The notes under the pieces are model-generated. The model was given only the letters and a program-made list of their open reading frames with translations, was not told where the DNA came from and did no database searches. Shown here in pieces: positions 27,705 through 48,207 of a stretch of DNA of 64,000 nucleotides; position 1 is the stretch's first letter, and every line of letters begins with the position of its first letter. Position numbers and translations under genes: made by a program. The DNA comes from an uncultured Lachnospiraceae bacterium (lineage in GTDB: Bacteria; Bacillota; Clostridia; Lachnospirales; Lachnospiraceae), in assembly GCA_947625775.1 (NCBI GenBank), contig CANQPM010000004.1:1-64000 (forward strand). The letters are read 5' to 3'.

Positions 27705-27718
27705 GAGGTGGTTTAAGT

Positions 27719-29116: not shown

Positions 29117-29128
29117 CGGAGGTGTGCG

Positions 29129-30575: not shown

Positions 30576-31547
30576 ATGGAAAGAGAGACGGCTTTGCAAA
30601 GCTACCGGGAGGCGGTATCCGGGAAGATAGAGGATTTTCGCAGCAATATGGAAAAACATCTTCTGGAGCATGCCGAATATCTGGAAAATATGGTGAAATC
30701 AGGCATGGATCTTTTGGGGGAACAGATGAAAAAGCAGGAAAAAGAGTATGTCTGCTTTTTGTATAGTTCTGTGCTGAAGACAGACCTGATTGCTGGTAAG
30801 TATCGCATTTTCTTCCATGGTCTTGACATGCGATGGTATCTGGATGAGGAGCCCGCGGAGGTGTATGTGGATGCGGCAGAATTATTTGAGCCGCTTGACC
30901 GTCTGCGTAATGCGCTGGAAGAGGCAGACAGCGGTTATGGGGGAGCCGTAAGCAGCTATGATATTCAAAACCTGCTCTTTGAAGAGCTGCCGCTCATGGA
31001 CAGCATGATCTGTCAGATCCTCCGTTACCGTCTGCGTGACTGGGAAACAAAGGGGATTTTTGATAAAGTGGCCCACTCGCCCTATTGGCTCTTAAAGTGG
31101 GGGGAATACCGTGACAGGGCGGAATTCCTGCTCCAGACAGACCGTGTGGAAAAGCCTGACTCGGCATGGAAGGAAGAATTGAAGAAAGCAGCGCACGATC
31201 CCGAAAAGATGGTGTTCAGCTATTGGTACAAAGGGAAATGCCAGGGGAAAAATCCACAGAATCTGGATATGCGGTTTATTACCTTCGAGGACTGCAAGGT
31301 GCAGGATGTAAAGTTTGAAAACTGTAACATGGAAGGAAGCCGGTTTCCCCAAAGCAGGATCAGCGGGTGCAGTTTTGAAGGCTGCAATTTAAGCGGTGCG
31401 GACTTCAGAAACTGTAGTTTTGAAAATACATCCTTTGCGGGAGCGGAGCTTACAGCAGCTGTTTTTCCGGCAGAGAGCATTCCTTTTCTGGAGATCAGCG
31501 CACAGCAGCTCCAGTCGGTTCAGATATACAGGGAGGAACAGGCATGA
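30576..31547 (+). CDS. Pentapeptide-repeat protein of the injection operon
   Basis: The 323-residue protein has an N-terminal helical part (residues 1-60) and a mixed middle domain. About a dozen pentapeptide-type repeats follow (around 232-300: F-E-D-C-K, F-E-N-C-N, F-E-G-C-N, L-S-G-A-D-F, F-E-N-T-S-F), which fold into a right-handed quadrilateral helix. It overlaps the next gene by four bases (ATGA), so the two are translationally coupled. An adaptor or chaperone role for an effector is inferred from position. Confidence 0.65.
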   Translation: MERETALQSYREAVSGKIEDFRSNMEKHLLEHAEYLENMVKSGMDLLGEQMKKQEKEYVCFLYSSVLKTDLIAGKYRIFFHGLDMRWYLDEEPAEVYVDAAELFEPLDRLRNALEEADSGYGGAVSSYDIQNLLFEELPLMDSMICQILRYRLRDWETKGIFDKVAHSPYWLLKWGEYRDRAEFLLQTDRVEKPDSAWKEELKKAAHDPEKMVFSYWYKGKCQGKNPQNLDMRFITFEDCKVQDVKFENCNMEGSRFPQSRISGCSFEGCNLSGADFRNCSFENTSFAGAELTAAVFPAESIPFLEISAQQLQSVQIYREEQA

Positions 31548-33706
31548 GATATTTTTTCATCCAGCAGGACAAGGAACTGCCCTGTGCGATCCAGTACCGG
31601 GATTTTGACATCAACGGAGGGCGTCATGTGTTCTCAAAACAAGATGCAGGGCGGCTGAACGACAGCGTCGTTTTGTACCTGAAAGGAAGCGGAAGAGAAG
31701 CCAGATGGGATTTCCTGCAGTGTCCGGTGACAATGTTTGACGAGCGGTTCAGGGATATTCTGGAGGCGTATGAGCCGGGGCTCTTTTTTCAGGAGGTAGT
31801 CCTGATCCACAAGGAAAATGCCCTGCAGTATCAATATGTACATACCCTCATGGAGCAGGTGGATGCCGTCTCGGATAAAACCGAATATTATCCGAACGGA
31901 ACTGTGAAACGGCTGGTTTTGGATTCTTCCAAGATTGGCAGGCATAATCTGTTCCTGCTGGGAGGGAGCCACAGAAAAGATCCGATTGTCAGTCTCGCAC
32001 TGGCGGAAAGCCTGCTGCGCCGGCAGTCGATCGGGATCTGCCTTGAAGAAGTGGAGGTGGATTATAAAAATGAAACGGAGATCAAAGACCCTGCAGGAGT
32101 ATGCACCCGTTACGAGTATGACATCTTAGGCAGGCGGAGCCGTATTTATAACGATGAGGGGCTGGAAGTGCGCTACGGCTATGACGCACTGAACCGTATC
32201 AGCAGAATCCATTATGGCAACGGCGTGGAAACTGCCTATGCCTATGATGGCGACGGCAATATCAGCAGGTTAGAAACCAAGGCAGGAGAAAAAGTTCTGC
32301 TCTCCTTTGCATACCAGTATGACGGCAACGGGAACCGTACAGCGAAGGCAGGTACACAGGCAGGACTTGGTGGCATTACTGTTGGGAATAATACCTTGGA
32401 TATTTCCTATAGCTATGACATTCGGGGACAGCTTTTGGAAGAACGCAGGAACGGCGGTTCTGTTTCTTATGCCTATGACAAGGCGGGAAACAGGATCAGG
32501 AAGACAGACGCCAAAGGCGCAACCCTATACCGGTTTAACGGGAAAAATCAGCTGATTGAAACAGAAAATAATAATAGCAAAAATCAGTTTACATATGACA
32601 GACAGGGCGGTATAGTAGAAGAGAAGAACGTTGCGGGTATTCGGCTGTTCTCCTATAACAGCCGCCACCAGCAGACAAAAGTGGAGACTGAGAACGGCAG
32701 TGTGCAGGAGAACCTTTATGATGTAGCGAATCTGCGCTTTGAACTGTTGGAGAACGGCAGGCGCACAGGGTTTGTATATCACAACGGCGAGCTTCTGCAT
32801 GAGGAAGGAGGGGATGAAAGCCAGACAAGCTATCATTTAGGGGCAGGGATTGATGCACTGCAAAGAGGGCAGGATCTGTCTTATTACCACCGTGATGAGC
32901 AGTTTAGCACGGCATTCATTACAGGTGCAGACAGGGAAATCCAAAACAGCTACCTTTATGATGCCTTTGGCGATGAATTAGAGGTAAAGGAACAACTCCA
33001 AAACCGAATCCGTTATACAGGGCAGCAGTATGATGACCTGACAGTGCAGTATTATCTGCGTGCAAGGTACTATAATCCTGTGCTTGGGCGGTTTATGCAG
33101 GAGGATGTGTACCAGGGTGATGGACTGAATCTGTATGCGTACTGTGGGAATAATCCAGTAGTGTATTATGATCCGAGCGGATATGCAAAAGCACCACAAC
33201 AGTCAGGAGATGGATGTCCACCAAATGGAAAAGTTGCAGAGAACGAAAACGATAAGGGGGATTATTATCAAGATAGCAATGGAGATTGGCATAGACCAAA
33301 CGGCGAATATGCATCAAATGCAGAAGTAGGTCTACCAGAACCGCAAAGTCATACAGGAGGAGAGAGAGGAGGAAGATTAGGAAGTCCAGAAACGAGGGCG
33401 CAGAATGGTGAAATAGCCACATATTTAGAAGAAAATGGATATACAATTACAGGCGGTGGAAATAGATTGCCAGAAGAATATTTACCTGGTGTAGATGGTG
33501 GAAATAAAGGAAGCAATTATATAGATGTCACAGCACAGAAAGGAGATGAAACCATTAGAATTAACACAGTAGATACATATGCCGATGGAACGCCTACTGC
33601 TCGAGAATTGAATGCTGCAAACTCGATAATGGAAAAAATAGATGGGGTACTTATTTTGATTCCTAAAGGTGCGGGCACAGGAGATTTGCCTAATAGGATT
33701 AACTGA
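31544..33706 (+). CDS. Chimera: immunity-like (DUF1629-like) domain fused to Rhs core and a nuclease-like toxin tip (module 1)
   Basis: Residues 1-185 form a globular domain resembling DUF1629/Imm11-type proteins. At residue ~186 (T-E-I-K-D-P-A-G) the sequence switches in frame to Rhs/YD repeats. The standard Rhs boundary (R-Y-Y-N-P-V-L-G-R-F ... D-P-S-G-Y) is near residue 540. The tip (about 548-720) ends in a domain with Y-I-D-V-T-A-Q-K and I-R-I-N-T-V-D-T-Y-A-D-G, reminiscent of PD-(D/E)XK-type nuclease toxins. The Rhs N-terminal export region is missing. This is the only Rhs copy still joined to the injection operon. Confidence 0.7.
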   Translation: MRYFFIQQDKELPCAIQYRDFDINGGRHVFSKQDAGRLNDSVVLYLKGSGREARWDFLQCPVTMFDERFRDILEAYEPGLFFQEVVLIHKENALQYQYVHTLMEQVDAVSDKTEYYPNGTVKRLVLDSSKIGRHNLFLLGGSHRKDPIVSLALAESLLRRQSIGICLEEVEVDYKNETEIKDPAGVCTRYEYDILGRRSRIYNDEGLEVRYGYDALNRISRIHYGNGVETAYAYDGDGNISRLETKAGEKVLLSFAYQYDGNGNRTAKAGTQAGLGGITVGNNTLDISYSYDIRGQLLEERRNGGSVSYAYDKAGNRIRKTDAKGATLYRFNGKNQLIETENNNSKNQFTYDRQGGIVEEKNVAGIRLFSYNSRHQQTKVETENGSVQENLYDVANLRFELLENGRRTGFVYHNGELLHEEGGDESQTSYHLGAGIDALQRGQDLSYYHRDEQFSTAFITGADREIQNSYLYDAFGDELEVKEQLQNRIRYTGQQYDDLTVQYYLRARYYNPVLGRFMQEDVYQGDGLNLYAYCGNNPVVYYDPSGYAKAPQQSGDGCPPNGKVAENENDKGDYYQDSNGDWHRPNGEYASNAEVGLPEPQSHTGGERGGRLGSPETRAQNGEIATYLEENGYTITGGGNRLPEEYLPGVDGGNKGSNYIDVTAQKGDETIRINTVDTYADGTPTARELNAANSIMEKIDGVLILIPKGAGTGDLPNRIN

Positions 33707-33805
33707 TTTGCAAAAGGCATAATCTTTTAGTAGCTCAAGATAAAATGTGTCTCAAGATACGTGTTGAACGTTCGCCATTTTTCGTGAAATAAATGGTTGT
33801 GAAAA

Positions 33806-33839
33806 GAGTTTTTGGGGGGATTCCCCCCCCCCCCAACTC
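33806..33839 (+). repeat. G6/C12 homopolymer hairpin
   Basis: GAGTT, TTT, six G (33814-33819), ATT, twelve C (33823-33834), AACTC: a near-perfect palindrome built of homopolymers. It lies in the 334-bp gap between the first toxin and its putative immunity gene; nothing else is recognisable in that gap. Confidence 0.7.
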
Positions 33840-34040
33840 TTGGAAATCTTGTCAGAAGCTAAATTAAATGGATAATTCACTTTCTAACAAAGCCTACATG
33901 GCGGATATTTCAATGTGTAAAATTTCTGCAAATTGAGGTTTTAATAAAAATCTGCAGATACGAAATAAAATGTAACTATTTGAAATTTGTTCTACATAAA
34001 GTTTTCATATAAAAATAGGAGGAGAGTATAGAGAAAAGAC

Positions 34041-34577
34041 ATGAGTAAAACTTTGTATTTTTTTATGAATAAAGATGATTTAATGAATATGTCAGGTATA
34101 ATAGAAAAGCAAATAGATGTGGCCTATATAAGAAATAAAGCATATCATCAAACAAGCATCAAAGGATTTGGATCGATAACAGATTTTCCTGACTTAGGGT
34201 TAAATATTTCTGGAAATCAGCAGAATGAAAGTTATATTGTTATTGAAAAAAAATGTAATATTAATTGGAGAAAAGTAAAACAAAAAAATAATGATTATAG
34301 GTATTTTGTGGATCAAGCTGAGAATCCTGATTCAATTGTATTCTGGCCAGGAGGATTTTATAATAAGGAGAATTTAATATGTGGTCATATAGGTACTATA
34401 AGCGATACTGATGAATCGAAAAAGATATTTAAGTGTTTTGAAAAAAGCATTAAAAAAATATGTAGTGAAAAGCAAGGAAGATATTATTATAGTGAAAATG
34501 TAAAAGCAATGAAAAATGTTAGACTTATAACAATGAATATTAGAGAACCATTAATTTATGATATATGTATTAAGTAA
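34041..34577 (+). CDS. Putative immunity protein for module 1
   Basis: The 178-residue, lysine-rich protein of low GC sits directly after the first Rhs toxin, on the same strand, with AGGAGGAGAG upstream. It matches no family I can name. Position and base composition, sharply lower in GC than the Rhs core, are those of an immunity gene acquired with its toxin tip. It has no signal peptide, as expected for protection in the cytosol. Confidence 0.6.
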   Translation: MSKTLYFFMNKDDLMNMSGIIEKQIDVAYIRNKAYHQTSIKGFGSITDFPDLGLNISGNQQNESYIVIEKKCNINWRKVKQKNNDYRYFVDQAENPDSIVFWPGGFYNKENLICGHIGTISDTDESKKIFKCFEKSIKKICSEKQGRYYYSENVKAMKNVRLITMNIREPLIYDICIK

Positions 34578-34616
34578 TATTTTAAAGATGGCATGTTGAC
34601 TTGTGTAAAATATCAA

Positions 34617-35549
34617 TTAGGGTGCTGGGATTGACGCATTCCAAAGGGGGCAGGATTTGTCTTATTACCACCGTGATGAGCAGTTTAGCACGGCATTTAT
34701 TACAGGCAGGGATGGGAAATCCAGAACAACTACATTTATGCTGCCTTTGGCGCTGAGTCAGAGACAAATGAACAATTCTCGAACCGTATCCGTTATACAG
34801 GTCAGCAATATGATGAACTGACTGAACAGTACTATCTACGTGCAAGGTACTATAATCCTGTACTTGGGCGGTTTATGCAGGAGGATGTATACCAAGGTGA
34901 CGGATTGAATCTGTATGCATACTGTGAGAATAATCCAGTGGTGTATTATGATTCAAGTGGATATACAACACAAGCTGCGCAGCCAACATGCCCACCTACG
35001 TCTAATGTTGCCAATGGCAATGAGGAAAATAAGTATCCAGAAAGGACGCCCGAGGCACAGGCAGAGGCGCAAAAAGTAATAGATGCGAGAAATGAAATTG
35101 TGGCATCTGGAGAGAGTACAGTTAGTGCCCGTGCAGCAGCGGTATTTACTCATGAAGACGGTACAGTATCTGTTGGAGTAAGTGGTTCTCCAAATGGGCG
35201 AGGAGGTCTAGTGGACTTTGCTGAGACATTGCAAGATACATTAAACGAGGATGCAGGATATGATAAATATACAGTTTCAGGAATAGTAGATAAGGAATTA
35301 TATTCACAAATAGAGGTTCCACCACAGGGTGGAGGATGTCCTCGAGGAGTATGCGCTGAGCCCAAAGCGGCTACGGCGGCACATTATAACGATAGCCCTA
35401 TAACGGGAATGGATGTAAGGTATTTTGATGAAACAAGTAACCCATATCCACTTATAAATGCAAATTCTCCTAATCAGATGGAGTTTTGTAATACATGCAA
35501 AAGCAACGAAGAGGTGATTATGAATTATGCCAATAACAATCAACAATAA
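34617..35549 (+). pseudogene. Orphan Rhs C-terminus with deaminase-type toxin tip (module 2)
   Basis: Rhs homology starts abruptly at L-G-A-G-I-D-A (34617) with no start codon. One base is missing near 34711-34716 relative to the other copies (gggaaatcc for ggggaaatcc), shifting the frame. From about 34720 the frame is open to 35549. The tip contains C-P-R-G-V-C-A-E-P-K-A (35341 region) and C-N-T-C, the C-A-E ... C-x-x-C zinc site of YwqJ/BURPS-type nucleic-acid deaminase toxins. It is a silent cassette unless recombined onto a full Rhs. Confidence 0.7.
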
Positions 35550-36348
35550 ATCAATACCATTACAGGGAGATGAAAAAACACTTATACAAAGATTAAGAAA
35601 TTATATTGATCCAGTTGATAAAGGCTGGTTTAATAGATTGCAGCCAGCCAATGAAGGACAGATTGATGAATTAAAACAACAACTGGAACTAAATAAGGCA
35701 GGAATAGAGTTGCCGTTGGTATATACAGAATTCTTGCGTCATGCAGGAGAAGGTGCTGGAGGATTATTTCTTCCAACTCTTCGTGCCGAAATGTCTGTTT
35801 CCTCTTTGATTTCTTGTAGAGTAAAACTACAAATCAATCAGGAGGAACGTAATGCACCCTATTATTTTACTTTTTTGATGGACGATTTGGGTATCTGCTA
35901 TACAATGGATCTTGATTATCAATTTCCTAAAATATCTTTGGAGGAAGACTATCCTGTTAGTGCGAATTTTGAAAATTTTGTTCTGCAAAGTGCTGTAAAA
36001 TGTTATGAGAACAAATATTATACACAGAGAATAAATTTTAGTGCAAGTATTAATGCTCTTAGTAATTCAGAGGTAGGAAAAAAAGGCCTTGATTTATTTG
36101 AATTTGTAAATGATGCATTAGAAATGTATCATTTACAAAAGGCATGGTTTAACGATGAATATTTTTATTTTGCTTACTCAAATAAATGGTCGATTTTCTT
36201 GGATCGTAGCGGTGGAGGTTTTTGGGGAGGTGTTTTTTTAGATGAATTACAAATTGGAAAGGATATAGGAAGAGTACTATCATCTAAAGCAGGTGCTCAT
36301 ATCTATATAAATGGGAATACTAATCCTACAGCTTTACAGGGAGATTAA
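35527..36348 (+). CDS. SUKH (SMI1/KNR4)-like immunity protein for module 2
   Basis: The 273-residue protein overlaps the deaminase tip by 23 bases. It has a SUKH-type opening (L-Q-P-A-N-E-G-Q-I-D-E-L ... L-P-L-V-Y-T-E-F-L-R-H-A-G-E-G, about 38-78), the hallmark of SMI1/KNR4-like immunity proteins, which commonly guard against deaminase and nuclease toxins. The C-terminal half is a second beta-rich region. An AAGAGGTG site precedes ATG 35527. Confidence 0.7.
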   Translation: MPITINNKSIPLQGDEKTLIQRLRNYIDPVDKGWFNRLQPANEGQIDELKQQLELNKAGIELPLVYTEFLRHAGEGAGGLFLPTLRAEMSVSSLISCRVKLQINQEERNAPYYFTFLMDDLGICYTMDLDYQFPKISLEEDYPVSANFENFVLQSAVKCYENKYYTQRINFSASINALSNSEVGKKGLDLFEFVNDALEMYHLQKAWFNDEYFYFAYSNKWSIFLDRSGGGFWGGVFLDELQIGKDIGRVLSSKAGAHIYINGNTNPTALQGD

Positions 36349-36433
36349 TATTATTAGAATGTTGTGTTTTATAATGTAGAAATAATAACTGTACATATCA
36401 TGTTTTGCCAGTAGAAAATAGAGTAAATAAGCA

Positions 36434-36574
36434 TGAGCACAATTAAAAAATATCAGAATACAATGGAAGAAATAATGCTTGATTTGCGTTTTCTGCGTGG
36501 ATTAGATGAAAAAATGTTTGTTTATGTCGGGATCTTTTAAAAGAAATAATTGATGAACTGAAAGACAGTGAATG
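36434..36574 (+). pseudogene. Small frameshifted ORF (about 46 aa)
   Basis: ATG 36434 opens M-S-T-I-K-K-Y-Q-N-T-M-E-E-I and reads coherently to about 36520. The sequence then makes sense in another frame (C-R-D-L-L-K-E-I-I-D-E-L-K-D-S-E, stop 36572), implying one missing base. The family is unknown. Nearby, ccccagc/gctgggg (36591-36607) forms a short hairpin. Confidence 0.35.
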
Positions 36575-36644
36575 AAAACCCTAATCCCCCCCAGCTATGC
36601 TGGGGAGAATAGAGTAAGCGGGGGCGTAGAAGATGGTATAATAA

Positions 36645-39299
36645 AGCCTCCACAGCTATGACGCAAACGGCAACCTGACCAGGATCACCACGCCGAAAGG
36701 CTTTGTGATCCACAGAAGTTATGATGCGGACGACCGCCTGACGGAAGAATGGGTCACGGTCAGAAGGAGCGGCATTGACAGGCGGGTGCAGTATGCATAT
36801 GACGAGGCCGGAAACATCCTGAAGAGCACAATCCTAGGCACAGACGGGGAGCGTCTGGAAACAGGTTTCTGCTATGACCTGAAAGACCGCCTGACCCACA
36901 GGACAAATCCCAGCGGCGCCGTCCTGCGCTATCTCTATGACCGGAATGATGAGCTTTCCAAAGCAGTCAGCCCATATGCCTATGAGCAGGACGGCAATAA
37001 CGGAGCGGGAACGGCCTATGCCTATGACAGCCGAGGCAACCGAATCCGCGTCACGAACGCTTTGGGAGAAACCGTACAGGAACTGTCCTACAACCTGCAG
37101 AATCAGCCTGTCATGCAGAGAGACGCCTTTGGAAACGAGACAGAGTATTCCTATGGTCTGGATGGAAAGATTAATGATGTACGGCGCGGAAATGTAAATG
37201 AAACAGAACGTCGCACGCTTCAGCAATATGAGTACAACGCCAGAGGGCAGATCATCGGCATCGTGGACGGTAACCGGAATCCCATTTCCTATGACGTGGA
37301 CAGCTGGGGGCGTATCACTGGCGTTGGATTTGCAGACGGCGTAAAGGAAGGCTATGAGTATACCCCCGCTGGGCAGGTCAGCAGAACCACAGACGGAAAT
37401 GGCAATACAGTACAGTACCGTTATAACAGTTTCGGCAGGGTAAGCGAGCGAATAGACCAGCTCGGATACACAGAGACATTCCAGTATGACGAGGAAGGCA
37501 ACCTGTCCCTGCACATTGACAGGGATGGCAGGCGGCTGCAGCGTGAATGCAACGTATTCGGTAAGCCGGTATATGAGAAAGCCACGGATGCAGAAGGTAA
37601 CAATCCCAATATCAGTACATGGCATTATGACAGCCTCGGGAGGGTTACCCATGCCATCTGTGACGGCCACTCGTATGAATACATATATGACGAATACGGA
37701 AACCTGAAAGAAAAGCGTTCCAGCGGGAGACGCTTGGTTTCCTATGCCTATGACAAAGCGGGGCAGATTATGGAGATTATAGACCCTGCAGGGGTATGCA
37801 CCCGCTATGAGTATGACATCTTAGGGCGCAGAAGTCGTATCTATAATGATGATGGACTGGAAGTATGCTACGGATATGATGTCCTAAACCGTATCAGCCA
37901 TATCCGCTATGGCAACGGCGTGGAAACGGTCTATACCTATGATGGGGACGGAAATCTCAGCAGCCTGGAGACGAAAGCAGGGGAAAACATCCTGCTCTCC
38001 TTTGCGTACCAATATGACGGCAATGGAAATCGGACGGTGAAGACAGGCATACAGGCAGGCGCGGCATTAGGTGGCATCACTTCCGAAATCACCGCAGGGA
38101 ATAATGCGCTGGACATCTCCTACCGCTATGATGTCAGGGGGCAACTTCTGGAAGAGAAGCGGAATGGTGCTTCTGTTTCTTATGCCTATGACAAGGCGGG
38201 AAACCGAATCAGGAAGACAGATGCCAAGGGCGCGACCCTATATCGGTTTAATGGGAAAAACCAGCTTATCGAAACAGAAGATAGTGAGGGCAAATATCAG
38301 TTTACATATGACAGGCAGGGTGGTATAGTAGAAGAGAAGAACGCTGCGGGTATTCGGCTGTTCTCTTATAACAGCCGTCACCAGCAGACAAAGGTAGAAA
38401 CTGAGAACGGCAGTGTGCAGGAGAACCGTTATGACGTGGAAAGCCTGCGGTTTGAACTGCTGGAGAACGGCAGGCGCACAGGGTTTGTATACCACAACGG
38501 CGAACTTCTGCATGAGGAAGGGAGGACTGGACAAGAATCAAACCAACAGACCAGTTACCATTTAGGTGCAGGGATTGACGCACTTCAAAGAGGGCAGGAC
38601 CTGTCTTACTACCACAGGGATGAGCAGCTCAGCACCGCATTCATTACAAGCACAGAAGGGGAAATTCAGAACAGCTACCTTTATGATGCCTTTGGCGCGG
38701 GGTTAGAGACAGATGAACAATTCCAGAACCGTATCCGTTATACGGGTCAGCAGTATGATGAGCTGACAGGGCAGTATTATCTGCGGGCAAGGTATTATAA
38801 TCCTGTGCTTGGACGGTTTATGCAGGAGGATGCGTATCAGGGCGACGGGCTGAATCTGTATGCGTACTGTGGGAATAATCCAGTGATGTATAGTGACCCT
38901 AGTGGATATGCCAAAAAGAAAAAATGTGTAGAGGAAAACCATGGAGAAAATGAACATGATGGAGAATCACCAGCTTTAACAACTAGTCCATATAATCCTG
39001 ATGCTGTCGAACAAAGAATCAAGCCAGACTACAAACCCAATCCGGCACATGATTCACATTCTAGCAATTATAACACACACAAAACACCAGAACCATTAGA
39101 TGCATCCAGCGTATATGGTGATGCGGTTAGAGGAGGTATGGGTGAATGGTATGGAGTCAATGAGAAAGGAGAAATTTATCAGTTCTTTTATGACAATGAT
39201 GACGGTGTACATTTTGCCGGTATAATTACAAAGTCAGATTTACTAAATAAAAATTCTTCAATATTAAGTTTATTAGGTTTATCTCCGAAAGGGAAATAA
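36645..39299 (+). CDS. 5'-truncated Rhs protein with unknown toxin tip (module 3)
   Basis: YD-repeat sequence begins immediately after an in-frame TAA at 36642, with no convincing start (GTG 36705 is the first candidate and has no ribosome-binding site). It runs through about 750 residues of Rhs core, the longest core in the window, to D-P-S-G-Y near 38900. The ~130-residue tip contains P-N-P-A-H-D, K-T-P-E-P-L-D-A-S-S-V-Y and W-Y-G-V-N-E-K-G-E-I-Y, a pattern seen in many Rhs and colicin-like tips that I cannot name securely. It probably serves as a donor cassette. Confidence 0.7.
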   Translation, partial: SLHSYDANGNLTRITTPKGFVIHRSYDADDRLTEEWVTVRRSGIDRRVQYAYDEAGNILKSTILGTDGERLETGFCYDLKDRLTHRTNPSGAVLRYLYDRNDELSKAVSPYAYEQDGNNGAGTAYAYDSRGNRIRVTNALGETVQELSYNLQNQPVMQRDAFGNETEYSYGLDGKINDVRRGNVNETERRTLQQYEYNARGQIIGIVDGNRNPISYDVDSWGRITGVGFADGVKEGYEYTPAGQVSRTTDGNGNTVQYRYNSFGRVSERIDQLGYTETFQYDEEGNLSLHIDRDGRRLQRECNVFGKPVYEKATDAEGNNPNISTWHYDSLGRVTHAICDGHSYEYIYDEYGNLKEKRSSGRRLVSYAYDKAGQIMEIIDPAGVCTRYEYDILGRRSRIYNDDGLEVCYGYDVLNRISHIRYGNGVETVYTYDGDGNLSSLETKAGENILLSFAYQYDGNGNRTVKTGIQAGAALGGITSEITAGNNALDISYRYDVRGQLLEEKRNGASVSYAYDKAGNRIRKTDAKGATLYRFNGKNQLIETEDSEGKYQFTYDRQGGIVEEKNAAGIRLFSYNSRHQQTKVETENGSVQENRYDVESLRFELLENGRRTGFVYHNGELLHEEGRTGQESNQQTSYHLGAGIDALQRGQDLSYYHRDEQLSTAFITSTEGEIQNSYLYDAFGAGLETDEQFQNRIRYTGQQYDELTGQYYLRARYYNPVLGRFMQEDAYQGDGLNLYAYCGNNPVMYSDPSGYAKKKKCVEENHGENEHDGESPALTTSPYNPDAVEQRIKPDYKPNPAHDSHSSNYNTHKTPEPLDASSVYGDAVRGGMGEWYGVNEKGEIYQFFYDNDDGVHFAGIITKSDLLNKNSSILSLLGLSPKGK

Positions 39300-39301
39300 A
39301 A

Positions 39302-39814
39302 ATGAAACACAATAATATTATTATAGGTAAAAAGAATCAATTTGCTATTCAATATAGCATCGAGCAAACAAAAAAACCATATATTTGGGGGCATATATGT
39401 TATTGGATACAGGGGATGATGATAGGCGATATCACGCATACAACAATATTAAGCGATGTTTTTGTGTTTTTGCCTAGAATTGTTCATGATAATGGAAATA
39501 GATTTCATGAGTTGTTTTATAAAATGAATAAAGATAAAGCATTCTATTTCTTAAGTGGTCAAGCATTTGTAGACAACCCCAAATATGAGGAGCAAGCTAT
39601 AGCTGAAACATGGGCTAGATTCAGTATTGAAATTGGTCTCGATGTTTTTTCAGGTACTATAGTGAAACTTATAGAAAATGAATCTGAAGCAAGAATAATA
39701 TATTCTTTTGATGGAAAAAAAGTATATGATTTATTTTTGAAAAAAGGAATTGTGGACGATGTTTTTGAACAATTTTTAGAGCAATTTAATTGTATTAGTA
39801 GAAATTTTAATTAA
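39302..39814 (+). CDS. Imm42-like immunity protein for module 3
   Basis: The 170-residue protein starts two bases after the toxin stop. The N-terminus (K-K-N-Q-F-A-I-Q-Y ... W-G-H-I-C-Y-W-I-Q-G-x-x-I-G-D) resembles the Imm42 family. Low GC and tight coupling to the tip support an immunity role. Confidence 0.65.
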   Translation: MKHNNIIIGKKNQFAIQYSIEQTKKPYIWGHICYWIQGMMIGDITHTTILSDVFVFLPRIVHDNGNRFHELFYKMNKDKAFYFLSGQAFVDNPKYEEQAIAETWARFSIEIGLDVFSGTIVKLIENESEARIIYSFDGKKVYDLFLKKGIVDDVFEQFLEQFNCISRNFN

Positions 39815-39904
39815 TTGTGTGATTAGTTTGGTTTATCTGTAGGGGACGATCAGCGTACCGTTCAGTAATATGAGTACAACGCCAGAGGGCAGATCATCGG
39901 CATC

Positions 39905-42052
39905 ATGGACGGCTGCCAAAATCCCATTTCCTATGATGTGGACAGCTGGAGCCGCATCACCTGCGTAAGCTTTGCGGACGGCGTAAAGGAAGGGTATGAA
40001 TATACCCCTGCCGGCCAGGTCAGCAGGACCATAGACGGAAACGGCAATTCGGTACAGTACCGCTACAACAGCTTGGGTAAGGTCAGCGAGCGAATTGACC
40101 AGCTCGGGTACAGCGAGACCTTCCAGTATGATGAGGAGGGCAATCTGTCCCTGCATATTGACAGGGACGGCAGAAGGCTGCAGCGTGACTGCAATGTTTT
40201 CGGAAAGCCTGTGTATGAGAAAGCAACGGATGCGGAAGGGAACAACCCCAACATCAGCACCTGGCACTATGACAGTCTGGGAAGGGTCATCCGTGCAGTC
40301 TGCGACGGGCATTCCTATGAGTATGTTTATGATGCACAGGGAAATCTGAAAGAGAAGCGTTCCAGCGGGAGACGCTTAGTTTCCTATGCCTATGACAGGA
40401 TGGGACAGGTAACGGAGATAAAAGACCCGGCCGGGGTATGCACACGTTACGAGTATGACATCCTGGGCAGACGGAGCCGTATTTACAACGATGAGGGGCT
40501 GGAAGTGTGTTACGGATATGATGCCTTAAACCGCATCAGCCATATCCGCTATGGAAACGGTGTAGAGACGGCCTATGCCTATGACGGGGACGGAAATATC
40601 AGCAGTTTGGAGACAAAAGCAGGAGAAAACATACTGCTCTCCTTTGCGTACCAGTATGATGGCAATGGGAACCGGACGGTGAAGACAGGTACACAGGCAG
40701 GAGAGGCATTAGGTGGCATCACATCTGGAATCACTGTGGGAAATAACGCACTGGATATCTCCTACCGCTATGACATCAGGGGGCAGCTTTTAGAGGAGCG
40801 GAGAAATGGCACTTCTGCTTCCTATGCCTATGACAAGGCAGGAAATAGGATCAGGAAGACAGATTCCAAAGGAACGATACTGTACCGATTTAATAGCAAA
40901 AACCAGCTGACCGAGACAGAAAATAATGAGAGCAAAAATCAGTTTACATATGACAGGCAGGGCGGTATAGTAGAAGAAAAGAACGCTAGTGGTATCCGAC
41001 TATTCGCTTATAACAGCCGCCACCAGCAGACAAAGGTGGAGACTGAGAACGGTAATGTGCAGGAGAACCTTTATGATGTGGAAAATCTGCGTTTTGAACT
41101 GCTGGAGAACGGCAGGCGTACCAGCTTTGTCTACCACAATGGCGAACTTTTGCATGAGGAAGGAGGAATTGAACAAGATTTAAGCGGGCAGACCAGTTAC
41201 CACTTGGGGGCAGGGATTGACGCGCTCCAGAGGGGGCATGAACTGTCCTACTACCACAGGGTCGAGCAGCTCAGTACTGCATTTATTACGGGCAGCGATG
41301 GAGAAACCCAAAACAGCTACTTGTATGATGCCTTTGGCGCGGAGTTAGAGGCAGATGAACAATTCCAGAACCGAATCCGTTATACGGGTCAGCAGTATGA
41401 TGACCTGACAGGGCAGTATTATCTGCGTGCAAGGTACTATAATCCTGTGCTTGGGCGATTTATGCAGGAGGATGTGTACCAGGGTGATGGCCTGAATTTG
41501 TATGCATACTGTGGGAATAATCCGATGGTGTACCATGATCCGAGTGGATATGCGAACGCTTCGCAACAGTCAGGAAATACTTGTCCGCCAGATGCTCAGT
41601 TTGGCAAGGCTGATAATACAGACAATGTCGATGAACCAGCTACTCATACTTACTATACAGTTCAAAACGAGTCAGATGCAGAAAGACTACGCGGAGATGG
41701 TACGCCATGGCCGACAGAGGGAACTAGAGCAAATCTGGGAGAAGGTGTCTATGCATGGGGCAATATGGATGATGCACAAAACTACTTAGAAAGAAAGCAG
41801 GGAAGAACCTCCGAACCTTTGTCAATATTACAATTTAATGTAAATGATAATGATTTAAGTAATATGAAAACTTTAGATACTAGGAATATGAGTGATGCCC
41901 AACGTGAGAGTTTCTTTGGTCAATATGGGGTACTCTATGGAGGGGAACCGAATCATGGGTATGATTATATTATTAATAATACGAACCTAGGTGTAGAACA
42001 CTATTTTAACATAACAGTATTTGATAAACTTCATTTTGAAGGAGGCAAATAA
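39905..42052 (+). CDS. 5'-truncated Rhs protein with possible ADP-ribosyltransferase-like tip (module 4)
   Basis: Rhs homology starts near 39860 but is interrupted by a TAA where other copies have CAA (39868 region). The open frame runs from ATG 39905 for 715 residues. The core ends at D-P-S-G-Y near 41540. The ~165-residue tip (Y-Y-T-V-Q-N-E-S-D-A-E-R-L ... G-E-G-V-Y-A-W-G-N-M-D-D-A) has a G-x-G-V-Y-A-W plus A-x-x-Y arrangement reminiscent of DUF3990/ART folds, but this is only a guess. TAA and the immunity ATG abut at 42052/42053. Confidence 0.65.
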   Translation: MDGCQNPISYDVDSWSRITCVSFADGVKEGYEYTPAGQVSRTIDGNGNSVQYRYNSLGKVSERIDQLGYSETFQYDEEGNLSLHIDRDGRRLQRDCNVFGKPVYEKATDAEGNNPNISTWHYDSLGRVIRAVCDGHSYEYVYDAQGNLKEKRSSGRRLVSYAYDRMGQVTEIKDPAGVCTRYEYDILGRRSRIYNDEGLEVCYGYDALNRISHIRYGNGVETAYAYDGDGNISSLETKAGENILLSFAYQYDGNGNRTVKTGTQAGEALGGITSGITVGNNALDISYRYDIRGQLLEERRNGTSASYAYDKAGNRIRKTDSKGTILYRFNSKNQLTETENNESKNQFTYDRQGGIVEEKNASGIRLFAYNSRHQQTKVETENGNVQENLYDVENLRFELLENGRRTSFVYHNGELLHEEGGIEQDLSGQTSYHLGAGIDALQRGHELSYYHRVEQLSTAFITGSDGETQNSYLYDAFGAELEADEQFQNRIRYTGQQYDDLTGQYYLRARYYNPVLGRFMQEDVYQGDGLNLYAYCGNNPMVYHDPSGYANASQQSGNTCPPDAQFGKADNTDNVDEPATHTYYTVQNESDAERLRGDGTPWPTEGTRANLGEGVYAWGNMDDAQNYLERKQGRTSEPLSILQFNVNDNDLSNMKTLDTRNMSDAQRESFFGQYGVLYGGEPNHGYDYIINNTNLGVEHYFNITVFDKLHFEGGK

Positions 42053-42481
42053 ATGGAAAAATATGTATATATATTGATGAAAGGTAGTTGGGGGATAAGT
42101 ATTGCTATATATGGACAGGTTTTTGATAAAGCATTCTTTACGGATGATATGAGTACTGTATGTGATGGAGTATGTCTTTCATTTTGCAAAGAACCTTTAA
42201 TCAAAAATGAAGTATTTTGTAAAGAAGATAGAGAATCAATTTTTAAGGCTATTAAAATGGTGGGAGGTAACATAATTTCTAACAGCCCCTTTCACAATAA
42301 TACTGTTATTCAAATATGTAGTTTGCAATATAGTTTATGCTATTATCAAGAAGAGGCTATGGTGGTAGCGATGCTTAATTGGTGTTCTAAAACCTTTAAT
42401 TTTGAACTTAGAAACATAGAAAGTAGGTTTGATTATGAAAATAACAAATATATTTTCGATTTAAAAGAATATATTGTCTAG
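42053..42481 (+). CDS. Putative immunity protein for module 4
   Basis: The 142-residue soluble protein begins on the base after the toxin stop. It matches no family I recognise. The IS630-family element is inserted exactly at its TAG: the stop's TA belongs to the duplicated target and its G to the element's terminal repeat, so the reading frame is preserved. Confidence 0.6.
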   Translation: MEKYVYILMKGSWGISIAIYGQVFDKAFFTDDMSTVCDGVCLSFCKEPLIKNEVFCKEDRESIFKAIKMVGGNIISNSPFHNNTVIQICSLQYSLCYYQEEAMVVAMLNWCSKTFNFELRNIESRFDYENNKYIFDLKEYIV

Positions 42482-42520
42482 TGTAATGACCTGCTGATAT
42501 TTAGCATTACTACTACCTCA

Positions 42521-43153
42521 TTAAGAGGCAGTAGTAAATGTAGGATACAGGGAACTGAGCTTTATTCTGGCATCACTGGTTCTAAAATGCCAGTTGACCT
42601 TTGCTGCCAGTGTATTTCGTTCCACTTCCCATGCGGACAGCTCACTGCGTAACAGTCCTATTTCTGCGATGCGGCGGCTGAGGCATTGTCTGGTCATGAC
42701 ATTAAGCTCTATTTCGGCGATGTCCAGCCAGCTCCCATGCTTTGGGGTATAATGTATCTCCAGTTTTTTTATAATGCGTCTTGCTTCCTCTGCTGGATAT
42801 CGTTTATACAGAGAAGCAGGCTTATGGGTGTTGAGATTGTCCATCACAAGGATAATTTTCTCGGCATCCGGATACATGGTGTCTACCAAATACCTGATTT
42901 CCTCTGCCCAGTCAACTGCTGTACGGTGTTCACGCACGCTGACATGATGGGTTCCTCCAAGCGGCTCCACGAAAGCAAATATGCTGGCTGTACCATTACG
43001 AACATATTCAGGATCTGTTTTCCAGTCACTTCCGGGTATCATTGGCATAGGATCTCTCGTTTCCCCCAAAAGCTGGTATGGCTTTTCGTCCATGCATACG
43101 ATCGGACGCTTTTCGTCATAGGGAAGTTCGTAAACATCAAGAACATCCTCCAT
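42521..43153 (-). CDS. IS630-family transposase, C-terminal part (DDE domain)
   Basis: This frame carries the catalytic triad of the IS630/Tc1 DDE domain: Asp in V-C-M-D-E-K, Asp in I-L-V-M-D-N-L-N-T-H, and Glu in D-I-A-E-I-E-L-N. The protein frame actually opens upstream of the first ATG, reading back to the A8 run at 43224-43231 (plus strand T8) where it meets the N-terminal frame. It is expected to be made as a -1 frameshift fusion with the upstream ORF. Confidence 0.85.
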   Translation of the reverse strand: MEDVLDVYELPYDEKRPIVCMDEKPYQLLGETRDPMPMIPGSDWKTDPEYVRNGTASIFAFVEPLGGTHHVSVREHRTAVDWAEEIRYLVDTMYPDAEKIILVMDNLNTHKPASLYKRYPAEEARRIIKKLEIHYTPKHGSWLDIAEIELNVMTRQCLSRRIAEIGLLRSELSAWEVERNTLAAKVNWHFRTSDARIKLSSLYPTFTTAS

Positions 43154-43158
43154 ACATG

Positions 43159-43677
43159 CTATGAATTCCGGGTCTTCTTTTGCCGGGATGCACCAGTAGT
43201 CGTTTTTGTGAGGTCGAAGTTTGTTTTTTTTAAGGCTTTGCGGATTGCCTCCCTGCCTACAGGGGTTTCCAGAATCACTTTGGATTCTTCCTCAAGCAGA
43301 CGGATTGTCCACCGGGAACGCCCTTCTGGAACAGGGCCGCAGGCAAGTTCAATCAGTCGGGCTTCTGTACGCCCGTCAACCTTGCGTCTTGCATTATCTG
43401 AATTTACGCTCCTCTTAAATTCAGTAACGGCATCAATGCCGCCATTCATATATTTCGTCACAGTATTGGTGACAGTTGCCATGCAAACGCCATTGGATTT
43501 CGCGCTTTGCTCATGGGTTAAAACTTTTCCATGTGCTTCGTCCAGATCAAGGATAATCTGGCATCTGCTGCGGATAGTTTTTGAAGTTTCTTTCTTACAG
43601 ATAACAGATTTCAGCTTTTTTAATTCTTTTTCTGTAAGATGGATGCTGTACCTTTTTGGTCTTGCCATAGGAATCAC
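43159..43677 (-). CDS. IS630-family transposase, N-terminal part (HTH domain)
   Basis: The 172-residue ORF encodes the helix-turn-helix DNA-binding part (T-H-E-Q-S-A-K-S-N-G-V-C-M-A-T-V-T-N-T-V) and a winged linker. Its sense reading ends at the tta-aaa-aaa-aca stretch (plus strand 43222-43233). A -1 slip there enters the DDE frame; without slippage it ends with an out-of-frame tail. Confidence 0.85.
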   Translation of the reverse strand: MIPMARPKRYSIHLTEKELKKLKSVICKKETSKTIRSRCQIILDLDEAHGKVLTHEQSAKSNGVCMATVTNTVTKYMNGGIDAVTEFKRSVNSDNARRKVDGRTEARLIELACGPVPEGRSRWTIRLLEEESKVILETPVGREAIRKALKKTNFDLTKTTTGASRQKKTRNS

Positions 43678-43804
43678 CGCCGTTTCTTTTATTATACATC
43701 AAAACAGCTGTGATTACCAGAATTATTTGATTAAATATCAGCAGGTCATTACACTAGTATAGCGTTTTTTAATTTACTCGACCTTTTGGGTGATAATGTA
43801 TCAC

Positions 43805-45700
43805 GGAGGGCTATGAGTATACTTCTGCTGGGCAGGTCAGCAGGACCACAGACGGAAACGGCAATTCGGTACAGTACCGCTACAACAGCCTGGGTAAGGT
43901 CAGCGAGCGGATTGACCAGCTCGGGTACAGCGAGACCTTCCAGTATGATGAGGAAGGCAACCTGTCCCTGCATATCGACAGGGACGGCAGAAGGTTGCAG
44001 CGGGATTGCAACGTGTTCGGCAAGCCGGTATATGAGAAAGCCACAGATGCGGAAGGGAACCATCCCAACATCAGCACCTGGCACTATGACAGTCTGGGAA
44101 GGGTCATCCGTGCAGTCTGCGACGGGCATTCCTATGAGTATATTTATGACGCACAGGGCAACCTGAAAGAAAAGCGTTCCAGCGGAAGACGCTTAGTTTC
44201 CTATGCCTATGACAGGATGGGACAGGTAACGGAGATCATAGACCCTGCAGGGGTATGCACCCGCTACGAATATGACATCCTGGGCAGACGGAGCCGCATT
44301 TATAACGATGAAGGGCTGGAGGTGCGCTATGGCTATGATGCCTTAAACCGCATCAGCAGAATCCATTATGGCAATGGCGTAGAGACCTCCTATGCCTATG
44401 ACGGGGACGGAAATATCAGCAGACTGGAGACCAAAGCAGGGGAAACCATCCTGCTCTCCTTTGCGTACCAGTATGATGGCAACGGGAACCGCACAGTGAA
44501 GACAGGTACACAGGTAAATGCGGCTATAGGTGGCATTACTTCTGAAATCACTGTGGGGAATAACGCACTGGATATTTCTTACAGTTATGACATTAGGGGA
44601 CAGCTTTTGGAAGAGCGGCGGAATGGCGTTTCTGTTTCTTATGCCTATGACAAGGCAGGGAACAGGGTAAGAAAGACAGACGCCAAAGGCGCAACCCTAT
44701 ATCGGTTTAATGGGAAAAATCAGCTCATCGAGACAGAAAATAATGAGAGCAAAAATCAGTTTACATATGACAGGCAGGGCGGTATAGTAGAAGAGAAGAA
44801 CGCTGTGGGTATCTGGCTGTTCTCTTATAACAGCCGCCACCAGCAGACAAAAGTGGAGACTGAGAACGGCAATGTGCAGGAGAACCTTTATGATGTAGAG
44901 AATCTGCGCTTTGAACTGCTGGAGAACGGCAGGCGTATCGGCTTTGTCTACCACAATGGAGAACTGCTGCATGAGGAAGGAGGAATTAGACAAGCTTTAA
45001 GTGGGCAGACCAGTTATCATTTGGGTGCAGGGATCGAAGCACTGCAAAGAGGGCAGGACCTGTCCTATTACCACAGGGACGAGCAGCTCAGCACCGCATT
45101 CATTACCGGCAGAGACGGGGAAATCCAGAACAGCTATCAGTATGATGCCTTTGGTGCCAAAATAGAGACAAATGAACAAGTCCAGAACCGAATCCGCTAT
45201 ACGGGTCAGCAGTATGATGAGCTGACAGGGCAGTATTATCTGCGGGCAAGGTATTATAATCCTGTGCTTGGACGGCTTATGCAGGAGGATGTGTACCATG
45301 GTGATGGATTGAATTTGTATGCGTACTGTCATAATAATCCGGTGACATATTATGATCCGAGCGGGTATGCAAGAAAAAAACATTACAGTGTTCAAATACA
45401 CAGGATGCAGACCCTACAGGTACAGATACTGCCCCTGAAAATAGTAGAGGTGTTGGCGGAAAAGGTTGGCGCGGAGATAAAAATTGGAGAGATGATGTAA
45501 ATACTATAGGAGAAGGCGGAACGATAGAATCACTCCGTGGATTAGTGCCTACAGAACAAGAAGCAATTAGCTTAATAAATGAGTCGGGTGGAATCGTAAA
45601 TAGAATAGAAGGTCCACATAATCCACATAATCCACATAATTATAATCATATTAATTATACCACTCCAAGTGGTGGAAAGGGAACAATACAAATTCAATGA
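43805..45700 (+). pseudogene. 5'-truncated Rhs with toxin tip in the -1 frame (module 5)
   Basis: Rhs core starts at E-G-Y-E-Y-T-S-A-G (43805) without a start codon and runs to D-P-S-G-Y-A-R-K-K near 45375. In the core frame it then stops at 45500 with a meaningless tail. In the -1 frame after seven A (45374-45380) a coherent ~106-residue tip reads to TGA 45698. It is rich in Gly/Asn, with three copies of a P-H-N unit (ccacataat, 45614-45640) and ends H-I-N-Y-T-T-P-S-G-G-K-G-T-I. That stop overlaps the immunity ATG (ATGA), showing it is the native toxin end. Confidence 0.7.
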
Positions 45701-46185
45701 ATGTGAATGAAACGGAAACAATGGAATTTAAGAGTTTTAAGACGCAGGTTAGTATATTAGACAAATTGGAGGGTATTAGGGAAAGATATATTGAAAAATT
45801 TGTGAATAGTACTCATTCGCAATATCAAGAACAAATTCAAAAAAAATACAAATTTCGAGACGGATATTGCTATTTGGGATACTTGTGGGACTATATGAAG
45901 GAACCTACGGTTATTGATGAAAACTATATTAAATCAAAGGAAAAAGACATTGGTGATGTATATGTTTTTTGGGATATACATTCATGCGAGAGAATCTTGA
46001 TCAAAAATTATTGGAAATTTGGGAAAAGAGATATAATAGAACTAAATTTTGATGTCCTGCTAAAAGGAACAATGTATTTACCAGAGGATATTTATATTTT
46101 TGATGCTAGCTATATGTGGACAATGGTAATGACACACGAGATTATTAGCGGAAAACGGTATTGTGTAAAATGCGGAAATATTTAG
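45697..46185 (+). CDS. Putative immunity protein for module 5
   Basis: The 162-residue protein begins at the ATGA overlap with the toxin tip. A conserved-looking C-terminal half (V-Y-V-F-W-D-I-H-S-C-E-R ... Y-L-P-E-D-I-Y-I-F-D) recalls a widespread immunity-type family, possibly related to DUF4275, but I am not certain. No membrane or secretion signals. Confidence 0.6.
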   Translation: MNVNETETMEFKSFKTQVSILDKLEGIRERYIEKFVNSTHSQYQEQIQKKYKFRDGYCYLGYLWDYMKEPTVIDENYIKSKEKDIGDVYVFWDIHSCERILIKNYWKFGKRDIIELNFDVLLKGTMYLPEDIYIFDASYMWTMVMTHEIISGKRYCVKCGNI

Positions 46186-46339
46186 TGTAAATAATTGAAC
46201 GTAAACGGCAGGACGTTCGTAATTGAACTGTTAAAAAATCACGAAAGTGATATGTTTTCACATATTGTTTAGAATTATAGGCAGTTGTATTGTAAAGAAG
46301 TGTTGCATGGGAGGAATAAAAATCACACAGACCACAACG

Positions 46340-46604
46340 TATTTTGCATCAGTACGAGTATAACGCCAGAGGCCAGATCATCGGCATTGCGGACGGCAAC
46401 AGAAACCCCGTTTCCTATGATGTGGACAGCTGGGGACGGATCACCGGTGTCAGCTATGTGGACGGCGTAAAGGAGGGCTATGAGTACACCCCTGCCAATC
46501 GGATCAGCAGGACAGTGGACAGTAATGGTAGTTCCTGCAGTACCGATACAACGGCTTTGTTAAAGTCTGTGAGTGCGCCGATTAGACAGGCTACGAAGAA
46601 ATAA
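46340..46604 (+). pseudogene. Rhs core remnant at the end of the array
   Basis: Rhs repeats (Y-E-Y-N-A-R-G-Q-I-I-G ... V-D-S-W-G-R-I-T-G-V ... G-Y-E-Y-T-P-A) are readable from 46344 to about 46520, then a one-base change throws the frame out. There is no toxin tip. It marks the downstream limit of the Rhs array. Confidence 0.75.
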
Positions 46605-46651
46605 TTTGATATGCTGCACAAGAAAAACTATATATTAGAACAAATGTAGGA

Positions 46652-46698: not shown

Positions 46699-46756
46699 TC
46701 CATGATAATTTCAGATTCCATGTAAAATAAATTACATGAAAGATTCGGAGGTCAGA

Positions 46757-47095: not shown

Positions 47096-47138
47096 CGAAA
47101 AAAAGATATAAAATCGACAAACATAATATGACAAATAA

Positions 47139-47219
47139 GGTTATAAAAGTGGTTATAAATAAAGGTATAAATGCGGTTATATACGAGTTACTATGAAACG
47201 GTTATAATTATGGTTAATA
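47139..47219 (+). promoter_or_regulatory. Phased GGTTATAA array (putative operator)
   Basis: Copies or near-copies of GGTTATAA start at 47139, 47151, 47164 (ggtataa), 47175, 47200 and 47212. The steps are 12, 13, 11, 25 and 12 bp, about one turn each. The array ends 22 bp before a ribbon-helix-helix-like gene, and TATAAT (47202-47207 region) inside it could be a -10 box. An autoregulatory operator is the obvious reading. Confidence 0.6.
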
Positions 47220-47241
47220 GACAGGAATCGGAGGTCATATT

Positions 47242-48190: not shown

Positions 48191-48207
48191 CGGACGGAGG
48201 GGAAAAT

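What the first reader, a model, noticed from the sequence alone, without database searches (positions are those of the whole stretch)
31544..46604. Archive of five Rhs toxin/immunity cassettes
Five different tips, each with its own low-GC immunity gene, are attached to Rhs cores that start at five different points of the same repeat sequence. Core segments are nearly identical at DNA level, offering long recombination tracts to swap tips onto the single expressed copy. This is a toxin-switching store carried on a conjugative element.
Basis: partly seen in the sequence, partly recalled or inferred. Interest (0 to 1): 0.75.

Follow-up and report, generated by a model that had tools for sequence, protein, structure and literature searches.

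The report
Orphan Rhs cassettes beside broken injector
A gut bacterium carries a row of five different toxin-tip and antidote gene pairs left over from swapping the ends of one big Rhs toxin, but in this genome much of the injection machine and of the full-length toxin gene that would use them is missing, so the row looks like a relic that may still serve as a set of antidotes.

Summary
The five Rhs tips, their low-GC partner genes and the five different core starts are real. Three claims fail. (1) The cores are not near-identical: 81-86%, dS 0.57-0.88 and dN/dS 0.08-0.12 among the four long copies, which suggests several donor lineages rather than local copying. (2) There is no working "expressed copy". 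Copy 1 is an in-frame fusion of an Imm11-like gene to the last ~390 core residues; in relatives that gene stands alone, followed by a PAAR gene and a ~2,500-aa Rhs. Tube genes, parts of two other machine genes, PAAR and the Rhs N-terminus are missing from the window; own-genome searches with three of these found no second copy. (3) T4SS genes are adjacent, but none was found in the stretches fetched around relatives' loci. Tip exchange itself is supported: two relatives, 95.4% identical over 13 kb, become unrelated exactly at the tip. Best reading: a known kind of array (C-terminal displacement, orphan Rhs-CT/immunity modules), here stranded by loss of its injector and kept, if at all, mainly as antidotes.

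The parts
31544..32062 (+). Imm11-like segment, a separate gene in relatives, here fused in frame to Rhs core
   Evidence: Weak Pfam Imm11 match, E 0.0024, below cut-off; separate 173-178 aa gene in G037 and G001
32075..33184 (+). Rhs core remnant of copy 1 (G037 residues 1986-2374)
33185..33706 (+). tip 1, no Pfam family; 30% identical over 82 aligned positions to a tip on contig C15 of the same genome
34041..34577 (+). putative immunity gene 1 (25.5% GC), 334 nt after tip 1; its N-terminus resembles the gene that follows the related C15 tip
34621..34964 (+). short core remnant of copy 2, split between frames
34965..35549 (+). tip 2; conserved CAE and CxxC motifs suggest a deaminase (motif recalled); 63% homologue on an orphan cassette in L114
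   Evidence: no Pfam match
35527..36348 (+). putative immunity gene 2, SUKH-like (sub-threshold)
   Evidence: relatives in L114 and C15
36651..38909 (+). core of copy 3 (G037 from residue 1613), longest core
38910..39299 (+). tip 3, no family; no match in the other 37 genus genomes
39302..39814 (+). immunity gene 3, Imm42 family
   Evidence: Pfam PF15593 E 7.5e-17
39842..41551 (+). core of copy 4 (G037 from residue 1796), stop codon near its 5' end
41552..42052 (+). tip 4, no family; one weak match among 298 other family genomes
42053..42481 (+). putative immunity gene 4; its last 109 residues have a 94% relative on contig C38
42479..43756 (-). IS630-like insertion sequence (two ORFs, terminal inverted repeats, TA on both sides), its left end at the stop codon of immunity gene 4
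   Evidence: ends read by eye; DDE_3 and HTH_29; IS630 name recalled
43800..45368 (+). core of copy 5 (G037 1843-2365)
45369..45697 (+). tip 5, reading frame broken just after the core
45697..46185 (+). putative immunity gene 5, DUF4275-like; second copy on contig C15, dN/dS 0.065
46335..46645 (+). sixth core fragment (G037 1799-1902), truncated at both ends
24625..25866 (+). remnant of a large putative injector protein (residues 205-621 of 726), abutting a truncated integrase
   Evidence: 'sheath' is a guess from size and position
25902..27023 (+). truncated actin/Hsp70-like gene (first ~376 of 827 residues)
   Evidence: name from a weak, sub-threshold Actin match in the relative
27602..30553 (+). 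two VgrG-like (Phage_GPD) genes
30576..31547 (+). pentapeptide-repeat gene of the injector locus
46736..49524 (+). HHH-like gene (weak match) and LytTR/GHKL two-component pair; homologues lie beside the locus in L110, L114 and G037 and mark the array's right border

Best explanation
This is an array of orphan Rhs-tip/immunity cassettes built by serial C-terminal displacement at one Rhs locus of a Gram-positive, Phage_GPD/PAAR(DUF4280)-type injection system. Each time an incoming cassette, carrying its own piece of core, recombined into the main rhs gene, the older tip and its immunity gene were pushed downstream with a core stub (0.3-2.3 kb here). That gives five (plus one fragment) different core start points between the main locus and the HHH-like/LytTR/HK genes. 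Shown: the anatomy, the divergence of the cores, and tip replacement at this locus in close relatives. Inferred: the order of events and the donors. In this genome deletions removed both tube genes, parts of the large 'candidate sheath' and actin-like genes, several others, PAAR and the first ~1,985 residues of Rhs, fusing the Imm11-like gene to core 1. Toxin delivery from this locus is therefore most likely dead. What can still act is the set of five open immunity reading frames, most plausibly kept as a store of antidotes against relatives' Rhs toxins (inferred, about 40%).
For: Tips and partner genes. Core starts on an intact Rhs. Missing genes relative to G001 and G037. In the own genome (98.77% complete) 1 match (the truncated one) to the candidate sheath, 0 to the tube, no main-Rhs N-terminus. 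Core dS 0.57-0.88 and dN/dS 0.075-0.118 among copies 1, 3, 4 and 5, close to dS of flanking genes against L110 (VgrG1 0.81, pentapeptide 0.76, Imm11-like 0.85). This suggests the cores diverged while parts of functional proteins. Same-locus tip replacement L110/L114. L114's main core is 96% identical to its own orphan's core, against 90% to L110's main core. Array size at the same site: no orphan core between main rhs and the HHH-like gene in L110, one orphan before LytTR in L114, four orphans plus a fragment here. Immunity gene 5 is duplicated as a gene-sized unit on C15 with dN/dS 0.065; the last part of gene 4 on C38, 0.033.
Against: Tip frames 1-4 are also open, so the array does not clearly favour antidotes over toxins. 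dN/dS of immunity genes may reflect selection in donors before arrival, and only two pairs could be measured closely. Cores are closer to each other (dS 0.57-0.88) than to the main cores of L110 and L114 (0.90-1.22) and group with L111's orphan core, so old paralogy within one clade is not excluded. The loss of the injector rests on one draft assembly of 42 contigs; PAAR was not sought outside the window, and the empty tube search carried no positive control of its own. No immunity protein was tested, and only 2 of 5 partner genes reach a Pfam cut-off. Two short tracts (c3-c5, c4-c5) suggest that cassettes did exchange core DNA. L110 also has a 110-nt core-like piece just past its HHH-like gene, so the border is not perfectly clean.
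Confidence: 0.7

Rival explanations
1. Active toxin-switching archive: recombination between cores moves a stored tip onto the expressed Rhs.
For: Shown experimentally for Salmonella, 522 bp at 95% identity (PMC3967940, passages). Tip replacement at the same locus in relatives. Short tracts shared between copies. Part of tip 1 (44% over residues 15-70) lies in a long Rhs frame of G149.
Against: No full-length acceptor or PAAR in the window, machine genes cut or absent, and no second copy of the three pieces searched for. Cores only 81-86% identical. No whole window tip found on a full-length Rhs.
Confidence: 0.1
2. Internal toxin-antitoxin modules: tip and immunity are co-expressed inside the cell and maintained as such.
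For: Tip and immunity genes overlap or abut in cassettes 2, 3 and 4. [quoted passage not shown]
Against: Promoter-like matches in the array (41) equal the shuffled expectation (37.2, sd 5.7), which neither shows nor excludes promoters. Tip 5 is broken while its immunity frame is open.
Confidence: 0.15
3. Neutral debris: the array is decaying along with the injector and has no present function.
For: Broken copy 2 core, broken tip 5, an insertion sequence, a doubly truncated core fragment and multiple missing genes.
Against: Five of five partner reading frames are open, and two duplicated immunity genes show low dN/dS.
Confidence: 0.3
4. The deletions are assembly errors and the strain has an intact locus.
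For: Draft assembly, and repeated cores invite misjoins; one 12-base homopolymer lies in the array.
Against: By eye the copy 1 junction joins unrelated sequences with few shared bases. No N in the window. The other deletions lie in genes that are not repeated in the window. Three of the missing pieces were not found elsewhere.
Confidence: 0.07

Closest known systems
Orphan rhs-CT/rhsI modules of Enterobacteriaceae (PMC3150448, PMC3967940; passages read)
   Same: [quoted passage not shown] tips differ between strains with near-identical loci
   Different: Lachnospiraceae-type Gram-positive genome, five cassettes, and here the main rhs gene and several injector genes are missing or cut
Immunity-gene arrays by sequential effector displacement in Vibrio cholerae T6SS (PMC5361080; passages read)
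   Same: Serial displacement at the 3' end of a secretion locus, leaving older immunity genes downstream
   Different: There the ancestral effectors are replaced and mainly immunity genes stay; here four of five tips still have open frames and keep core stubs
rAID orphan-immunity arrays of gut Bacteroidales (PMC12247911; abstract and outline only)
   Same: Gut bacteria holding orphan immunity genes, including SUKH-type
   Different: No recombinase-linked cluster was looked for here, and tips remain beside the immunity genes
PAAR_H2 (DUF4280) with Phage_GPD in Firmicutes, a speculated 'unknown phage-like translocation system' (PMC8651086; passages)
   Same: Relatives' locus pairs Phage_GPD VgrGs with DUF4280 PAAR and a polymorphic toxin
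   Different: That survey reports no eCIS or T6SS genes beside it; a relative here has a weak Hcp/TssD-like match (E 1.9e-4, below cut-off) in the same cluster

Membership tests
Orphan Rhs-CT/immunity array (C-terminal displacement) | Rhs core remnants ending in a conserved DPxG-type boundary followed by unrelated tips | tested here: met
   (copy 2 ends in DSSGY)
Orphan Rhs-CT/immunity array (C-terminal displacement) | A small partner gene directly after each tip | tested here: met
   Five of five have an ORF (cassette 1 after a 334-nt gap); two reach a Pfam cut-off (Imm42, DUF4275). Function not tested
Orphan Rhs-CT/immunity array (C-terminal displacement) | Orphans lie downstream of a full-length main rhs gene | tested here: not met
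   Main gene reduced to an Imm11-like fusion; met in relatives L114, L111 and G037
Orphan Rhs-CT/immunity array (C-terminal displacement) | Tips at the main locus differ between strains with near-identical flanks | tested here: met
   L110 against L114, 95.4% over 13,023 nt, tips unrelated
Recombination-switchable store (Salmonella type) | High-identity core overlap between orphan and a functional main gene | tested here: not met
   81-86% identity and no functional main gene
Type II toxin-antitoxin module | Internal expression of toxin and neutralisation by partner | not testable with these tools
   Only a consensus promoter scan, at chance level
Cargo of a conjugative element | Element borders enclosing both T4SS and array, or conserved linkage | tested here: inconclusive
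   Integrase beside tRNA-Arg at 23500 and T4SS ATPases at 51-59 kb, but no attachment repeat of 15 nt or more up to C4:144000; T4SS queries matched none of 20 fetched stretches, 19 of them from relatives

The most novel reading that the evidence does not exclude
A Gram-positive gut commensal that lost a phage-like Rhs injector but kept the displaced tip/immunity array, together with a second, immunity-rich array on contig C15, as a disarmed defence bank: a Gram-positive counterpart of the orphan-immunity arrays of Bacteroidales, grown from Rhs displacement debris.
Probability: 0.3. Interest if true: 0.55.

Novelty: new member of a known kind. Interest (0 to 1): 0.38.

Why it matters
It documents Rhs tip displacement, described in the papers seen here for Gram-negative loci, in a Lachnospiraceae-type injector locus, with a clean natural experiment (L110/L114). 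It also shows what happens to a cassette array once the weapon is gone. If the immunity genes still protect, it would suggest that gut Firmicutes keep antidotes against their relatives after disarming themselves, which is directly testable.

Tried and rejected
Near-identical cores: rejected by alignment and dS. Local tandem duplication of one cassette: tips are unrelated and core dS is near species level. However, the five cores and L111's orphan core form one group (support 0.981) in the core tree, so donors were close kin, and old paralogy is not fully excluded.

Window tips on full-length Rhs elsewhere. Tip 1: in a draw of 299 family genomes (own included), 4 other genomes and C15 gave weak partial matches. 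On checking, the G149 match covers residues 15-70 at 44%, lies past a core-like stretch, and is inside an open frame reported as 2,064 aa: a partial exception. Tip 4: 1 other genome of 299, weak, in a 210-aa frame. Tip 3: 0 of 37 other genus genomes. Tip 2: 0 of 37, but one orphan homologue in L114. Immunity 1: 0 of 37. Immunity 5: 1 of 37, plus C15. Tip 5 and immunity genes 2, 3 and 4 were compared only with 21 fetched loci, not with whole genomes. The family draw took about one genome per genus, so it could miss close relatives. The tip-by-tip comparison rests on a motif pattern that missed some cores, such as the main ones of L111 and L070.

Toxin activities: Pfam gave nothing for five tip stretches; phmmer against the PDB gave nothing useful for tips 2, 3 and 4. 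Structure models were too poor to search (mean pLDDT 36 and 45), so no fold search was run. 'Sheath' identity of the 726-aa protein: no support from Pfam, NCBIfam, PHROGs or PDB; the tube profile found nothing in the PDB either. Attachment-site search: nothing of 15 nt or more. A first dN/dS run on cores used wrong frames (core rows) and is replaced. The PAAR gene of G001 was dropped by my overlap filter; its absence from the window rests on the DNA comparison with G037.
Full report
WHAT IS THERE. The window is the first 64 kb of contig C4 of a 3.75 Mb, 42-contig genome, 98.77% complete. Between 31.5 and 46.6 kb lie five Rhs core segments, each ending in DPSGY/DSSGY, each followed by a different tip and then a low-GC gene. 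Among the partner genes, gene 3 is Imm42 (E 7.5e-17) and gene 5 is DUF4275-like (E 2.6e-6), both above Pfam's cut-off. Gene 2 resembles SUKH below cut-off, and genes 1 and 4 have no credible match. The tips match no Pfam family. Tip 2 carries CAE and CxxC motifs conserved with its L114 relative, which I recall as typical of deaminases. Pairing of tip 1 with gene 1, 334 nt apart, is supported by a related tip on contig C15 followed by a gene with a related N-terminus.

CORE STARTS AND DIVERGENCE. Against the 2,506-aa Rhs of relative G037 the cores begin at residues 1986, 2248, 1613, 1796 and 1843, and a sixth fragment covers 1799-1902. The five cores are 80.9-86.4% identical, with longest identical runs of 16-78 nt. 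Among the four long cores dS is 0.57-0.88 with dN/dS 0.075-0.118; against the main cores of L110 and L114 their dS is 0.90-1.22. For flanking genes, window against L110 gives dS 0.81 for VgrG1, 0.76 for the pentapeptide gene and 0.85 for the Imm11-like gene. So the cores differ from each other about as much as flanking genes of two species do, while keeping the constraint of working proteins. I read this as import of cassettes from several donors within a close clade (inference). In a permutation test of 28 pairs among eight cores, two pairs passed a Bonferroni limit of 0.0018, both within the window: c3-c5 (0 of 2000) and c4-c5 (P 0.001), each over a tract of about 70 nt. Several between-genome pairs had P between 0.0075 and 0.05, and the test ignores uneven conservation along the core, so this is a hint of exchange, not proof.

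THE MAIN GENE IS BROKEN. In relatives G037 and G001 the order is VgrG, VgrG, pentapeptide gene, Imm11-like gene (173-178 aa), a ~270-aa gene, full-length Rhs (2,506 and 2,950 aa); in G037 an orphan core follows. The ~270-aa gene of G037 is a DUF4280/PAAR protein. In the window the Imm11-like gene runs in frame into core residue 1986; PAAR and the first 1,985 Rhs residues are absent. The upstream cluster is also cut: the large 'candidate sheath' protein keeps residues 205-620 of 726, both ~142-aa tube-like genes are gone, the actin/Hsp70-like gene keeps the first ~376 of 827 residues, and further genes are missing. Three own-genome searches found only the truncated candidate sheath, no tube, and no main-Rhs N-terminus (residues 31-1600) beyond the two VgrGs and YD-repeat similarity. 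The empty tube answer had no positive control in that call; the same query does match G037 at 80% by tblastn. PAAR was not searched for outside the window.

TIP EXCHANGE IN RELATIVES. The genome-contig scan gave six loci, all titled MAG: two Acetatifactor, three Lachnospiraceae bacterium, and one (L115) titled Gastranaerophilales. L110 and L114 are 95.4% identical over 13,023 nt, from VgrG to the last bases of the Rhs core, and lose similarity right at the tip. In 500-nt windows identity is 90% at the very start, 95-99% up to 10 kb, and 87-95% over the last ~3 kb of core, as expected if tips arrive with a piece of core, or if that part evolves faster. In L114 the main core is 96% identical to its own orphan's core but 90% to L110's main core. 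A core of L112 is 98.4% identical over 910 nt to an orphan core on contig C15 of the window's genome, with a different tip. No orphan core separates the main gene from the HHH-like gene in L110, though a 110-nt core-like piece lies just past that gene; one orphan lies before LytTR in L114; here there are four plus a fragment.

IMMUNITY GENES TRAVEL ALONE. Immunity gene 5 has a copy on C15 whose DNA similarity (93.8% over 518 nt) begins 11 nt before and ends 12 nt after the gene; dN/dS is 0.065. The last 107 codons of gene 4 have a relative on C38 with dN/dS 0.033. C15 holds two tips next to core pieces and several further small genes that may be immunity genes. This supports, but does not prove, a second, immunity-rich array.

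CONJUGATIVE ELEMENT. A truncated tyrosine integrase lies beside tRNA-Arg, and T4SS coupling and VirB4-like ATPases lie at 51-59 kb on the other strand. No repeat of 15 nt or more links the tRNA/integrase region with the rest of C4 up to 144 kb. T4SS, integrase and serS/parA queries matched none of 20 fetched stretches (19 from relatives, one from C15 of the own genome), while the HHH-like (L110), LytTR (L114, G037) and HK (L114) genes right of the array did match next to the locus. The fetched stretches are limited and partly masked, so linkage elsewhere is not excluded.

COMPARISON. Orphan Rhs modules and their recombination onto the main gene are known in Salmonella, where the shared stretch is 522 bp at 95% identity (PMC3967940, passages), and orphan modules in other Gram-negative bacteria (PMC3150448, passages). 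Serial displacement leaving immunity arrays is known in V. cholerae, whose authors cite Jackson et al. 2009 for Rhs (PMC5361080, passages; Jackson itself not read). Orphan Rhs pairs as toxin-antitoxin modules: PMC7043789 (passages). Orphan immunity arrays in gut Bacteroidales: PMC12247911 (abstract and outline). A speculated phage-like translocation system with DUF4280 PAAR and Phage_GPD in Firmicutes: PMC8651086 (passages). In the rows shown by four searches for a Lachnospiraceae or Firmicutes contractile system (20 of 41, 1 of 1, 12 of 54 and 12 of 124 papers) I saw no title on this locus; only open-licence papers are held.

VERDICT. Origin by serial C-terminal displacement is well supported (about 85%). 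That this array is now stranded by loss of its injector and main gene is well supported for this assembly (about 80%). A present role as antidote store is my best guess (about 40%), against plain debris (30%), toxin-antitoxin use (15%) and active switching (10%).

Noticed in passing
L085:10062-19497 with L070 (G001:C7), L068 (G037:C12): Relatives carry a cluster with two ~142-aa proteins (one tested, with weak Hcp/TssD and gp19 matches), a 726-aa protein without any credible family match, a DnaJ-like protein, a weakly PP2C-like protein and an actin/Hsp70-like protein upstream of VgrG/PAAR/Rhs: a candidate machine for the 'unknown phage-like translocation system' speculated for Gram-positives in PMC8651086.
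   Followed up: partly
L077 (G000:C15:67700-83700): Second array in the same genome: core fragments, two tips, a copy of immunity gene 5, a SUKH-like relative of immunity gene 2, a DUF4275-like gene (below cut-off), two DUF6756-like genes (one above cut-off) and other small genes.
   Followed up: partly
window 31544-32062: An Imm11-like gene lies between the pentapeptide and PAAR genes in G037 and G001; 24 of 38 genus genomes (own included) have some match to it, many weak and their places not examined. Its place suggests an adaptor or chaperone rather than an immunity protein.
   Followed up: no
L112:11579-13144 against G000:C15:78003-82524: Core DNA 96-98% identical between two genomes whose other compared cores are about 78-79% identical, with different tips: probably recent horizontal transfer of core segments.
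   Followed up: partly
window 23500-24776: tRNA-Arg followed by a tyrosine integrase gene whose start is replaced by reverse-strand sequence of the truncated injector gene.
   Followed up: partly
window 36593-36625: Short hairpin-like sequence just before the start of core 3, seen by eye; not tested for recurrence at other junctions.
   Followed up: no
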